This document shows positions 40,897 through 43,991 of a DNA stretch of 64,000 bases, in pieces. The DNA lies in the NCBI GenBank assembly GCA_017656265.1, contig JACDOD010000001.1, forward strand, positions 186,001 through 250,000. Reading direction: 5' to 3'. Position 1 is the first letter of the stretch. Each line of letters begins with the position of its first letter. The stretch comes from Bacillaceae bacterium. Its GTDB lineage: Bacteria > Bacillota > Bacilli > Bacillales > Alkalibacillaceae. The position numbers were made by a program, and so were the translations under genes. The notes under the pieces were generated by a model. The model did no database searches. It saw only the letters and a program-made list of their open reading frames with translations, and was not told the origin of the DNA.

Positions 40897-42615
40897 ATGG
40901 TAAAACAGAGGGATTCAATCATTGGTAAAGAAAAAGGAATACTGATTTTATCTATTTTCTTTGCCTTGCTGTATCTTTTTATTTTATTTTTGCGCCCTGG
41001 TCTATTTATTAATGACTTCAGGGGTATGCATATTTTTCTTCAATTTTTAAGTGTATCGGTAGCTTATGCGATAGCGTTCGAAGGATGGCTGTCCTATCCA
41101 TTTTCTTATTCGCAGCATCGGTTATATGTTGCTGCTATGTTTCTTGCCATAGGAACGTTCGATTTATTATATATTATGACTTTTATTACGGAACGTCCGC
41201 AGATCTTATCTTTTTTGACAGAAATGAATCATGATTGGCTCTGGATCATAGCACGGCTGACTGTGGCAGTATTCCTTCTGGTCATTTTTAACCTAAAAGA
41301 TACCAGTACTATTGTGATTAACCGGAATCTGGTATTCAGTTTTTCCATTTTATTCATATCCATTGTTGTATTATCAGTTATCAATATTCAATTTCCGCCA
41401 CTATTTCATGAAAATCAGCGTCCTACACTTATAAAAATCGGAATGGAAATTCTTATAGCATCCATACATTTTCTTACAACCATTATTTTGATCCTTCAAT
41501 ACAAAAAAACAAAAGAAGATGCAAGGTTATACTTTATCATGTCCTTGTTATTGCTTTCTTTAAGCGAACCCTCTTATATGTTTCTAAATGAAGGAACCTG
41601 GCTGAACGTGCTTGGAGATATCTATAAGATTTTTGGATACTATTTCTTCCTGAAAGGGCTGCACACATCTACCATTAAAGAACCCTATGAAAAGGAACGA
41701 AAAACTCAGGAAGAACTGTTCCAGAGTGAAGCGAGATATAAGCGATTAATTGAAGATTCACCAGACGCAAATATCGTTCACAGGAATGGAAAAATCATTT
41801 ATGTTAATAAAAATGCTGTAAAATTAATAAAAGCAAAAGATCGAATGGAACTGATCGGCCAGTCCATTTATGATTTCCTGCCAGAAAAATATCACGATTT
41901 AATCAGGGAAAATATGCAAAGAATGATTGTTAACAACCAGATTTTTGAACAGACAGAGCTCACCATCTATGATTTTGAAAAAAATAAAATGGTCATTGAG
42001 GTGTCTGCTATCCCAACAGTTTTCGGGGTAGAACCGGCTGTTCACATTATTTTCCGGGATATTACTAGACGGAAAGAGCTGGAAAAAGAATTAAAGGAAA
42101 AGAACGAGATATTAAGGCATCTTTCTTCCATCGATGGTTTAACCGGAATACCCAATCGCCGATCATTTGAGGAAGTTCTCACAAAAGAATGGAATCGAAA
42201 TATGAGGGAAGACAGTCCCTTATCAGCCTTAATGGTGGACATTGATTATTTTAAAAATTTCAATGACCATTATGGCCACTTAGCAGGAGATGATTGCCTA
42301 AAACAGGTAGCCAGGACCCTAAAAAGCCAGCTGAAACGATCCAGTGACTTTATTGCTCGATACGGCGGAGAAGAATTTGTGATCTTGCTTCCCGGAACTG
42401 ATCAATCTGGGGCTTACACAGTAGCGAAAGAACTATGCAATAGTGTGAAGAACCTAAAAATACCCCACGAAAAATCGGAAAGCGGGCAATATTTAACGGT
42501 CAGTGTTGGCGCTGCTACGTTAATCCCGGATGACAGTCATGAACCAAAAGATTTAATCAATCTTGCTGACCAGTCATTATATATACGAAAGCAGAGCAGG
42601 CCATGTAATTCATAG
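40897..42615 (+). CDS. Membrane-bound PAS-GGDEF diguanylate cyclase
   Basis: This 572-residue protein should make c-di-GMP from two GTP at the inner membrane face. Seven hydrophobic segments (about 10-250) resemble a MASE3-type sensor, then a PAS domain (about 280-395, IEDSPDANIVHRNGKIIYVN) and a GGDEF domain (about 405-572) with active site RYGGEEF (490-494 GGEEF). An inhibitory I-site RSSD sits at 481-484, exactly five residues before GGEEF, so the product should inhibit the enzyme. Control by riboswitch 1 adds feedback at the RNA level. GAAGGGGAT precedes the ATG. Confidence 0.92.
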   Translation: MVKQRDSIIGKEKGILILSIFFALLYLFILFLRPGLFINDFRGMHIFLQFLSVSVAYAIAFEGWLSYPFSYSQHRLYVAAMFLAIGTFDLLYIMTFITERPQILSFLTEMNHDWLWIIARLTVAVFLLVIFNLKDTSTIVINRNLVFSFSILFISIVVLSVINIQFPPLFHENQRPTLIKIGMEILIASIHFLTTIILILQYKKTKEDARLYFIMSLLLLSLSEPSYMFLNEGTWLNVLGDIYKIFGYYFFLKGLHTSTIKEPYEKERKTQEELFQSEARYKRLIEDSPDANIVHRNGKIIYVNKNAVKLIKAKDRMELIGQSIYDFLPEKYHDLIRENMQRMIVNNQIFEQTELTIYDFEKNKMVIEVSAIPTVFGVEPAVHIIFRDITRRKELEKELKEKNEILRHLSSIDGLTGIPNRRSFEEVLTKEWNRNMREDSPLSALMVDIDYFKNFNDHYGHLAGDDCLKQVARTLKSQLKRSSDFIARYGGEEFVILLPGTDQSGAYTVAKELCNSVKNLKIPHEKSESGQYLTVSVGAATLIPDDSHEPKDLINLADQSLYIRKQSRPCNS

Positions 42616-42753
42616 GATTAGGAAAATGTTGAAGTGACGATTCCAGAGAGAAAAGTCCATTATTCAACAAAATTAGTATAATTGTCCAGACAATTCATGA
42701 CAATGTTTTTTGCATCCATCATATATAATGAGTCTAAAAAAGTGGTGAAATGT

Positions 42754-43677
42754 ATGATGGACAGGCATTACAGAATTATCCAGATCAAGCATTTTCATTT
42801 TGATAAACAAAAGACGGAAATTGAAAACTTAACCGAAAATGATATTTGTTTTTACCATTTTATTGGCGGGAACTCGGATGATACAGACGTGCTTTTGGAG
42901 CGGATTGGTAATATAAAAGAAAAGCGCTCTCTGATTATCGGAATTTTCCGCTTTCCACATCGGTTTGAAGGGAAAAGGCGTCTGCGGATTGCCATCAATC
43001 AATACTACATGTTTAAGAAACTGTGTGATGGATTAATCTACTTTCTGAGTGACGGCATGATGGAAAAAATCGAATCGGGAACACCCATTAATGAGGCTCA
43101 TAATCAGTTTATGGCCTATGAAGAGAGCTGCATTAAAGCTATGGAGGAAATGATTGATAACCCCGGGGACATCAATATTGATGTAAGGGACATTCAATCT
43201 TTCGTCAAAAGAAGGACCAGCCCGTTATTCCTCCATATCATTGAACGGGATGATTTTGATGAACCATTGAAGCATATCATTGAAAAGCCCTATTTGCCTG
43301 CGGATTTCACAGATGGTGAGGAAATGATGATGAATATTGGCTATTCCCGGGATATTGATATGAATACGTATCAGCAGATTAACCTGCGTATGAATGATTT
43401 ATTTCATAAAGCAGACCTGGTTAAACTGGGTACATACTTTATCAATGAGCCCGGTAAAAAAATGAGGATAACCCTATTCGTGAACGGTCTGGGTGATCCT
43501 TACCCTCCATCCGAACACCTTAATTTTCTGTTTTTTAAAATGGTGAAGCAAAAATGCAAATCGCTCTTGCAAAAAGGAACATCAGAGTGGCTAAGGAAAA
43601 CGAACCATTCAAAAAATGAAACGTATGTGGATCAACAGGGACAGGAAATTAAGGAACAAAAGGAAAAAATACTATAA
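42754..43677 (+). CDS. Divergent, N-terminally reduced FtsZ-like protein
   Basis: This 307-residue protein aligns by eye with the second half of FtsZ. IIGIFRFPHRFEGKRR (61-76) matches the VGVVTxPFxFEGxxR strand-loop, and INEAHNQFM the helix with TPMLEAFREAD. GDINIDVRDIQSF (139-151) keeps the T7-loop Asn141, Asp143 and Asp146. EKPYLP...GEEMMMNI and GTYFINEP...ITLFVNGLG match the C-terminal domain. The first 100 residues of FtsZ, with the GTP-binding glycine loops, are missing, and the tubulin signature GGGTGTG is reduced to FIGGNSDD (37-44). It therefore should not bind GTP normally. The ATG at 42754 is my choice; a weak site GTGGTG precedes it, and the longer frame from 42682 runs into promoter-like DNA. 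Confidence 0.65.
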   Translation: MMDRHYRIIQIKHFHFDKQKTEIENLTENDICFYHFIGGNSDDTDVLLERIGNIKEKRSLIIGIFRFPHRFEGKRRLRIAINQYYMFKKLCDGLIYFLSDGMMEKIESGTPINEAHNQFMAYEESCIKAMEEMIDNPGDINIDVRDIQSFVKRRTSPLFLHIIERDDFDEPLKHIIEKPYLPADFTDGEEMMMNIGYSRDIDMNTYQQINLRMNDLFHKADLVKLGTYFINEPGKKMRITLFVNGLGDPYPPSEHLNFLFFKMVKQKCKSLLQKGTSEWLRKTNHSKNETYVDQQGQEIKEQKEKIL

Positions 43678-43711: not shown

Positions 43712-43767
43712 AAAAAATCCGAACTATATTCAATCGTCATATGAATGAATATATTTCGGATTTTTTT
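43712..43767 (+). terminator. Terminator after the FtsZ-like gene
   Basis: AAAAAATCCGAA (43712-43723) pairs with TTCGGATTTTTT (43755-43766), and an inner ATATTCA/TGAATAT extends it. The outer A/T ends give T runs in both directions. Confidence 0.85.
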
Positions 43768-43850: not shown

Positions 43851-43991
43851 ATGACCAAAAACGAAAATCATCGAAATCGCGGGAAAAGGGCTTCTAGTGT
43901 AAATCCACAGGGACTATCGGAAGATGAAGCTGACCAGCAGCCAAAATCACAACTGGAACAGCGTGCGAAAAAGAGACACACAAGAGGGTGA
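43851..43991 (+). CDS. Small basic hydrophilic protein (46 aa), possible spore protein
   Basis: An ATG after GGGAGGTG opens 46 codons: MTKNENHRNRGKRASSVNPQ, then GLSEDEADQQPKSQLEQRAK and KRHTRG. It is very polar and rich in Arg, Lys, Gln and Asn, with no hydrophobic core. Its own terminator follows at 44026-44061. Composition and size recall minor small acid-soluble spore proteins (SspK/O/P group), but I cannot match one. It could also be a small nucleic-acid-binding protein. Confidence 0.6.
   Translation: MTKNENHRNRGKRASSVNPQGLSEDEADQQPKSQLEQRAKKRHTRG

What the first reader, a model, noticed from the sequence alone, without database searches (positions are those of the whole stretch)
42754..43677. 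A chromosomal FtsZ-like protein that lacks the GTP-binding half but keeps the T7 loop
Seen: the order of segments follows FtsZ from its middle strand to its C-terminal domain, including GDINIDVRDIQSF with Asn141, Asp143 and Asp146 at the catalytic T7-loop positions. The first 100 residues of FtsZ are absent and the glycine signature is degenerate (FIGGNSDD). Known: in FtsZ filaments the T7 loop of one subunit contacts the GTP of the next. Inference: this protein could dock on the GTP face of a terminal FtsZ but could not accept a further subunit, making it a natural one-sided cap or poison, in the manner proposed for MciZ. Its neighbour is a c-di-GMP synthase and the organism sporulates, so a role in division control at a life-style switch is possible.
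Basis: partly seen in the sequence, partly recalled or inferred. Interest (0 to 1): 0.85.

Follow-up and report, generated by a model that had tools for sequence, protein, structure and literature searches.

The report
Sporulation-linked FtsZ paralogue without GTP site
A spore-forming bacterium carries a cut-down relative of the division protein FtsZ that has lost its own GTP pocket but kept the part that touches a neighbour's GTP, and its gene has the kind of promoter that starts sporulation genes, so it may help re-set cell division when a spore is made.

Summary
Window 42754-43677 encodes a 307-aa FtsZ paralogue (TIGR00065 E 2e-14; model against FtsZ, Z about 21). The GTP loops T1-T3 are gone and T4 is degenerate, but the T7 set (N208, D210, D213) is invariant in 33 of 33 distinct members. 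The loss looks like an internal deletion of about 60 residues. Members occur in 13 of 22 genomes of the host's family and in 8 genomes of other families among 397 sampled from the order.

New evidence is the promoter. An NGACA-N21-TATAAT-like promoter (at most one mismatch in the -10) stands before 34 of 36 distinct members. The stricter ACA-N5-TGACA-N21-TATAMT hits 17 places in 22 genomes: 10 at this gene, 7 at spoIIGA, none elsewhere. In a wider sample some sirA genes, and others, carry it too. spoIIG and sirA are Spo0A~P targets in Bacillus subtilis, so I infer expression at the onset of sporulation.

Best guess: it docks by its T7 face on the GTP face of FtsZ and remodels the Z ring for polar division; that is the opposite face to MciZ's. 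Docking and effect are inferred. The c-di-GMP neighbour is not conserved.

The parts
42663..42677 (+). Upstream element TTCAACAAAATTAGT; TTCAACA is a 6/7 match to the reversed core of a Spo0A (0A) box
   Evidence: at the same place in many relatives; 0A core TGTCGAA from PMC3485338 (passage)
42690..42702 (+). ACA-N5-TGACA, a repeat with a 10-base period that overlaps the -35 (TGACA 42698-42702)
42724..42729 (+). -10 box TATAAT, 21 bases after TGACA
   Evidence: same spacing in 34 of 36 distinct upstream regions
42740..42748 (+). likely ribosome-binding stretch AAGTGGTGA, shared by close relatives
   Evidence: sequence
42754..43677 (+). coding sequence of the GTP-site-less FtsZ paralogue, 307 aa (P0001)
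42946..42981 (+). T5 loop and start of H5 (residues 65-76); E72 = FtsZ E139 (33 of 33), R76 = R143 (32 of 33)
43159..43191 (+). T7 loop NPGDINIDVRD (residues 136-146); G138, N141, D143, D146 invariant in 33 of 33
43360..43440 (+). H10 and S9 (residues 203-229), which in FtsZ belong to the same longitudinal face as T7
   Evidence: model; contact regions from PMC8936486 (passages)
43501..43674 (+). C-terminal tail (residues 250-307) in place of the FtsZ linker and C-terminal peptide; tail net positive in 32 of 33 members
43712..43767 (+). inverted repeat AAAAAATCCGAA ... TTCGGATTTTTTT, possible terminator
   Evidence: seen by eye; the scan (loops of 3-8 only) found no terminator here

Best explanation
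It is a chromosomal, single-gene FtsZ paralogue made at the onset of sporulation under a Spo0A~P-type sigma-A promoter. It cannot bind GTP in the usual way. It most likely uses its T7-H8-H10-S9 face to dock as the 'top' subunit on the GTP-bearing face of an FtsZ subunit, and its two T7 aspartates act on that subunit's GTP. This would block or hydrolyse the exposed GTP end of FtsZ filaments, shortening or destabilising them when the Z ring moves from mid-cell to the pole. Shown by computation: homology, fold, loss of T1-T3, invariant T7, one clade, promoter shared with spoIIG and some sirA genes. Inferred: Spo0A control, binding to FtsZ, the end that is bound, trans-hydrolysis, the role in polar division.
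For: FtsZ homology and fold. T1-T3 absent, T4 degenerate, T7 N/D/D invariant in 33 of 33 although members share only 41-76% identity with the first rows of their alignments. In FtsZ D210 and D213 hold the water that attacks the neighbour's GTP (PMC8936486 passages), so their upkeep in a protein without a GTP site fits action in trans. A canonical ftsZ is in the same genome. Promoter: 21-base spacer in 34 of 36 upstream regions; ACA-N5-TGACA-N21-TATAMT hits only this gene (10) and spoIIGA (7) in 22 genomes, reversed control 2. SirA genes also carry it in the wider sample. spoIIG is stimulated by Spo0A~P (PMC12090719, PMC3485338 passages) and SirA is made under Spo0A~P regulation (PMC4285326 passage).
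Against: No complex with FtsZ was modelled or measured. T5/H5 of the top face is conserved as strongly as T7, which a pure one-sided cap does not need. H10 lies on the docking face, yet 0 of its 7 columns conserved at 90% equal FtsZ. The upstream 0A-like box differs from TGTCGAA at a contacted base (C4) in 18 of the 21 regions with a 6/7 match, and the upstream element by itself is not specific: its pattern gave 23 hits in 22 genomes against 8 in the reversed control, of which 9 are this gene, 1 sirA, 1 spoIIGA and 12 unidentified. The strict promoter pattern is met at 10 of the 13 family members and 7 of 22 spoIIGA genes. In the wider order it also precedes unrelated genes. The gene is missing from 9 of 22 family genomes although SpoIIGA is in 22 of 22, so sporulation as such does not need it.
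Confidence: 0.5

Rival explanations
1. It co-assembles inside FtsZ filaments as an inactive subunit, using both faces (T7 side below, T5 and the H6-H7 loop above), and so makes weak points or alters curvature, rather than capping one end.
For: T5 and H5 together hold 8 columns that are conserved at 90% or more and equal FtsZ; in T5 5 of 6 columns. In FtsZ the top-face contacts include T5 and the H6-H7 loop (PMC8936486 passages), both present here.
Against: T3, H1 and H2, the other top-face contacts, appear deleted; only 1 of 13 columns of H6 and the H6-H7 loop is conserved at 90%; the nucleotide that strengthens the interface cannot be bound in the usual way.
Confidence: 0.2
2. It no longer touches FtsZ polymers. 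The fold serves another sporulation-time task, for example a membrane or septum scaffold working through its basic C-terminal tail, and T7 is kept for structural or ion-binding reasons.
For: Very long branch to FtsZ (about 7 changes per column); basic tail, net positive in 32 of 33; invariant family-specific stretches such as PYL(P) and FxGGN.
Against: Exactly the FtsZ catalytic acids are invariant, hard to explain without a GTP partner. The tail's amphipathic moment beats shuffled tails at p < 0.05 in only 7 of 33 members.
Confidence: 0.22
3. It is made at sporulation and stabilises or recruits FtsZ at the pole (a helper of the polar ring), not an inhibitor.
For: Same promoter evidence. In B. 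subtilis SpoIIE shapes the FtsAZ filaments of the sporulation septum, and the authors suspect further unidentified factors for septum thickness (PMC8192124 passages).
Against: A T7-only subunit is expected to end a filament rather than extend it (inference). Membrane segments were not tested.
Confidence: 0.15
4. A decaying ftsZ copy with no function.
For: Broken copies exist in two records (L061, L062) and the gene is absent from many genomes.
Against: 31 of the first 249 columns are invariant in 33 members, the promoter spacing is conserved, and the open frame is kept over many genera.
Confidence: 0.02

Closest known systems
FtsZ (TIGR00065), Bacillaceae
   Same: Fold from S4 to S10, T5-H5, T7 with N208/D210/D213, order of elements
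   Different: No T1-T3, degenerate T4, no C-terminal FtsZ peptide, basic tail, 25% identity to the host's FtsZ, separate clade
MciZ, sporulation inhibitor of FtsZ (B. subtilis)
   Same: Proposed role: FtsZ regulator in sporulation
   Different: MciZ is a small peptide with a sigma-E promoter (both recalled) that binds the bottom (T7) face (PMC8936486 passage); this protein is itself an FtsZ paralogue, would bind the opposite face and has a spoIIG-type promoter
FtsZl1 and FtsZl2 (Makarova and Koonin 2010, PMC2875224)
   Same: FtsZ paralogues found beside a normal FtsZ
   Different: Those keep the nucleotide-binding core and differ in the C-terminal part; this one is the reverse (passages)
TubZ/RepX
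   Same: FtsZ/tubulin fold (4ei7, Z 18.1, rmsd 3.6, 248 aligned)
   Different: TubZ is a plasmid GTPase; no close member of this family was found in 72,556 plasmid records
SirA (PF10747)
   Same: Sporulation-onset inhibitor of a core cell-cycle machine; the same promoter type in some related genomes
   Different: Unrelated protein; acts on DnaA

Membership tests
FtsZ (orthologue-level) | Score above the curated cut-off of TIGR00065 (295.2 bits) | tested here: not met
   53.6 bits
FtsZ (orthologue-level) | Nucleotide site: T1 GxGGxG, T3, T4 GGGTGTG | tested here: not met
   T1-T3 absent, T4 reduced to GGN
FtsZ (orthologue-level) | Conserved C-terminal peptide | tested here: not met
   basic tail instead
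FtsZ/tubulin superfamily | FtsZ fold from S4 to S10 | tested here: met
   Z 21.6, rmsd 2.9, 243 aligned; second member Z 20.6, rmsd 2.6, 241 aligned
FtsZ/tubulin superfamily | T7 synergy loop NxDxxD | tested here: met
   33 of 33
FtsZ/tubulin superfamily | Polymerisation or longitudinal contact | not testable with these tools
   needs assay or complex prediction
FtsZl1/FtsZl2 | Nucleotide-binding core kept, C-terminal part divergent | tested here: not met
   core incomplete, C-terminal domain FtsZ-like (definition from PMC2875224 passages)
TubZ/RepX | Plasmid-borne GTPase | tested here: not met
   contig of 765,815 bases, no conserved neighbour, no close member in plasmids, no T1-T3
MciZ-like FtsZ cap | Binds FtsZ and blocks assembly | not testable with these tools
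   function only inferred
Spo0A~P-activated sigma-A promoters (spoIIG type) | Architecture shared with spoIIG of the same genomes, 21-base spacer | tested here: met
Spo0A~P-activated sigma-A promoters (spoIIG type) | 0A boxes upstream of the -35 | tested here: inconclusive
   6/7 core match in 21 of 32 regions, 1.3 expected from mononucleotide shuffles, but in 18 of the 21 the mismatch is at a contacted base
Spo0A~P-activated sigma-A promoters (spoIIG type) | Binding and activation by Spo0A~P | not testable with these tools
   needs footprint or reporter

The most novel reading that the evidence does not exclude
A Spo0A-induced natural 'half FtsZ' that works as a trans-acting GTPase activator and cap of the GTP-exposing filament end, taking down the medial Z ring and letting polar rings form. 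It would be the division counterpart of SirA and the mirror image of MciZ.
Probability: 0.3. Interest if true: 0.92.

Novelty: new variant of a known kind. Interest (0 to 1): 0.78.

Why it matters
How division is re-set for the polar septum in sporulation is not fully explained: in B. [quoted passage not shown] Here is a family of FtsZ paralogues with the GTP loops cut out, the catalytic T7 loop held constant and a promoter of the spoIIG kind. It gives a directly testable case of a natural T7-only subunit, which would also test filament polarity and trans-activation of GTP hydrolysis in FtsZ.

Tried and rejected
Neighbourhood: in 24 loci (mostly about 16 kb) no gene cluster recurs widely near the gene (largest: 7 of 24), so the GGDEF gene next door (MASE3-PAS-GGDEF) is taken as coincidence. 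Proteins that cluster with it by blastp lie near the gene in 2 other loci (L049, L058), at other places and strands; I did not study them.

Mobile origin: no close member in plasmids or phages; the rows listed are 20-26% identical and none covers 80% of the query (12 plasmid rows not listed).

Amphipathic membrane helix in the tail: suggestive only, better than shuffled tails at p < 0.05 in 7 of 33 members.

WalR, PhoP, ComK and other known boxes for the upstream element were considered from memory and dropped because spacing or core did not fit; no call.

Gene against sporulation pathway: SpoIIGA is in 22 of 22 family genomes, so the pathway does not explain the patchy distribution.

Prior description: the paper searches listed no paper whose title or abstract start describes such a protein; the library holds open-licence papers only.

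TGACA-N21-TATAMT alone is not specific: 4 hits in the host's genome, 5 in the reversed control.

Rows dropped: L016, L061 and L062 (partial or broken copies; T7 is intact in L016) and same-genome duplicates before the 33-row counts; 7 duplicate upstream regions before the count of 36, which still holds L061, L062 and both L033 and L044 (same promoter). The two regions without a 21-base hit, L044 and L059, were cut short by a start codon chosen too early (my reading). In 6 of the 34 another spacer also matched. In one search four regions were skipped (L044, L059, L061, L010). Of the 43 promoter hits read, six (L188-L193) were chosen by me because their genomes hold the gene; 3 of the 4 SirA cases are among these six. 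Without them: 37 hits, 20 spoIIGA, 11 this gene, 1 SirA, 5 other.

Full report
OBSERVATION. The reading frame at window 42754-43677 (+) encodes 307 residues. It is related to FtsZ well beyond chance: TIGR00065 E 2.2e-14 over residues 55-249, FtsZ chains of the PDB at 1e-10 by single sequence and 1e-21 by family profile; Pfam FtsZ_C alone is weak (0.025, below its cut-off). The genome has one canonical ftsZ, 25% identical to this protein over residues 48-207.

FAMILY. With the single protein as query, close members (E below 1e-70) occur in 2 of 2 genomes of the genus, 13 of 22 of the family and 18 of 397 sampled from the order, 8 of them outside the host's family; by profile, in 3 of 398 sampled from the class, the host included. 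The profile also found 23 named loci, among them Salirhabdus, Salinibacillus, Oceanobacillus, Ornithinibacillus, Paucisalibacillus, Filobacillus, Alkalibacillus, Evansella and Brevibacillus migulae; the next matches, at 1e-14, are far weaker. I picked 12 of these for the tree and 10 gave a readable FtsZ with its glycine signature. No close member was found in 72,556 plasmid or 50,697 phage records. A tree of 33 members with 20 FtsZs puts the members on one side of a fully supported branch about 7 changes per column long (no outside root). The members are thus a family of their own, not recent copies of ftsZ.

ANATOMY. The AlphaFold model (pLDDT 82.9; only two of its five models reached 75) and a second one for the Oceanobacillus limi member (83.8, all five 78.6-83.8) give the same order of elements. 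Both overlay solved FtsZ: 240 residues of the window protein match FtsZ 9-315 at Z 21.2, rmsd 2.8; O. limi: Z 20.6, rmsd 2.6, 241 aligned. The first strand falls on FtsZ from residue 9, so the loss looks internal: about 60 residues that in FtsZ carry the T1-T3 loops. By sequence alone the placing of this strand is weak; the profile match starts at FtsZ 85. T4 is cut to FxGGN. T7 (G205, N208, D210, D213) is invariant in 33 of 33; E139 in 33 of 33; R143 in 32 of 33. The FtsZ tail is replaced by a basic tail, net positive in 32 of 33.

HOW T7 BEARS ON MECHANISM. In S. aureus FtsZ, D210 and D213 of the top subunit hold the water before the GTP of the subunit below, and mutation of N208, D210 or D213 suppresses assembly (PMC8936486, passages). 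A protein without its own GTP has no evident use for these residues except on a partner's GTP; the FtsZ of the same cell is the plain candidate (inference). The same paper places H10, S9, H8 and T7 on the docking face, tentatively takes the T7-exposing end as the growing end, and says that MciZ binds that bottom face. Against a simple cap: T5 (5 of 6 columns conserved at 90% and equal to FtsZ) is as well kept as T7, and T5 belongs to the opposite face; H10 keeps none of FtsZ's letters in its conserved columns.

PROMOTER. Upstream regions of the family share NGACA-N21-TATAAT with at most one mismatch in the -10: a scan of spacers 14-24 found 21 in 34 of 36 distinct regions; both misses look like stretches cut short, and 6 regions had another spacer as well. 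Further up lies TTCNACAAAANTAGT. Its TTCNACA resembles the reversed Spo0A-box core TGTCGAA (PMC3485338 passage): a 6 of 7 match in 21 of 32 regions, 1.3 expected from simple shuffles. The regions are related, so this is no probability, and in 18 of the 21 the mismatch is at a contacted base. The upstream element with a TGACA behind it gave 23 hits in 22 genomes, 8 in the reversed control; 9 are this gene, one sirA, one spoIIGA, 12 were not identified. In the host's genome TGACA-N21-TATAMT occurs 4 times, no more than its reversed control (5), but one is this gene and one spoIIGA. With ACA-N5 in front, 22 family genomes give 17 hits: 10 at this gene, 7 at spoIIGA, no other; reversed control 2 (checked by tblastn). 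The pattern is strict: it misses 3 of 13 members and 15 of 22 spoIIGA genes. In 397 genomes of the order 98 have hits; hits are well over a hundred and control hits about thirty, both by eye. Of 43 hits read (the 17, 20 more with loci, 6 picked by me) 20 precede spoIIGA, 11 this gene and 12 something else, of which 4 are SirA by Pfam, 3 of these 4 being my picks. So in the wider order the pattern is not exclusive. A fifth SirA promoter, in the other genome of the genus, has the upstream element. spoIIG and SirA are under Spo0A~P in B. subtilis (PMC12090719, PMC3485338, PMC4285326; passages). I infer that this gene is switched on with spoIIG at the onset of sporulation.

SURROUNDINGS. Neighbouring genes differ between loci, and an inverted repeat follows the gene (seen, not reported), so it is probably transcribed alone. 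The GGDEF gene upstream is not a conserved partner.

CONCLUSION. A real, conserved FtsZ paralogue family of spore formers, not described in the papers my searches listed, without the usual GTP site, with an invariant T7 loop and a spoIIG-like promoter. Action on FtsZ at the switch to polar division is the best reading (0.5); inhibition by docking on the GTP face is the most likely form; the exact mode needs biochemistry.

Noticed in passing
L188 (G115:C5:137424-137463, - strand) against G115:C2:3352-3391: A near copy (38 of 40 bases) of this gene's promoter stands before an LCP/LytR-like gene (name by eye) in the same genome, as if the promoter had been copied to a cell-wall gene.
   Followed up: partly
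L061 (Piscibacillus salipiscarius) and L062 (Virgibacillus sp. YIM 98842): Copies of the gene with a broken reading frame; in L061 several neighbouring frames look split too, so assembly error is possible.
   Followed up: partly
L176 (G360:C110:302610-302649, - strand): The promoter pattern with CGACAAAACTAGT upstream precedes a gene that looks like a 3-methyladenine DNA glycosylase (by eye); possible further sporulation-onset gene.
   Followed up: no
L187, L189, L190, L192, L129: Some sirA genes share the long-spacer promoter (first four) or the upstream element (L129) with spoIIG and this gene; the pattern could help to find Spo0A targets in these little-studied bacteria.
   Followed up: partly
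window 43851-43991 (+): 46-residue charged ORF without a Pfam match at 0.001, between this gene and a LysR-type regulator.
   Followed up: partly
window 40897-42615 (+): MASE3-PAS-GGDEF diguanylate cyclase just upstream; not a conserved neighbour.
   Followed up: yes
window 42865-42873 and 43288-43299 (protein residues 38-40 and 179-182), and the same places in relatives: The FxGGN and PYLP stretches, invariant or nearly so in the family, may mark a new ligand or partner site.
   Followed up: no
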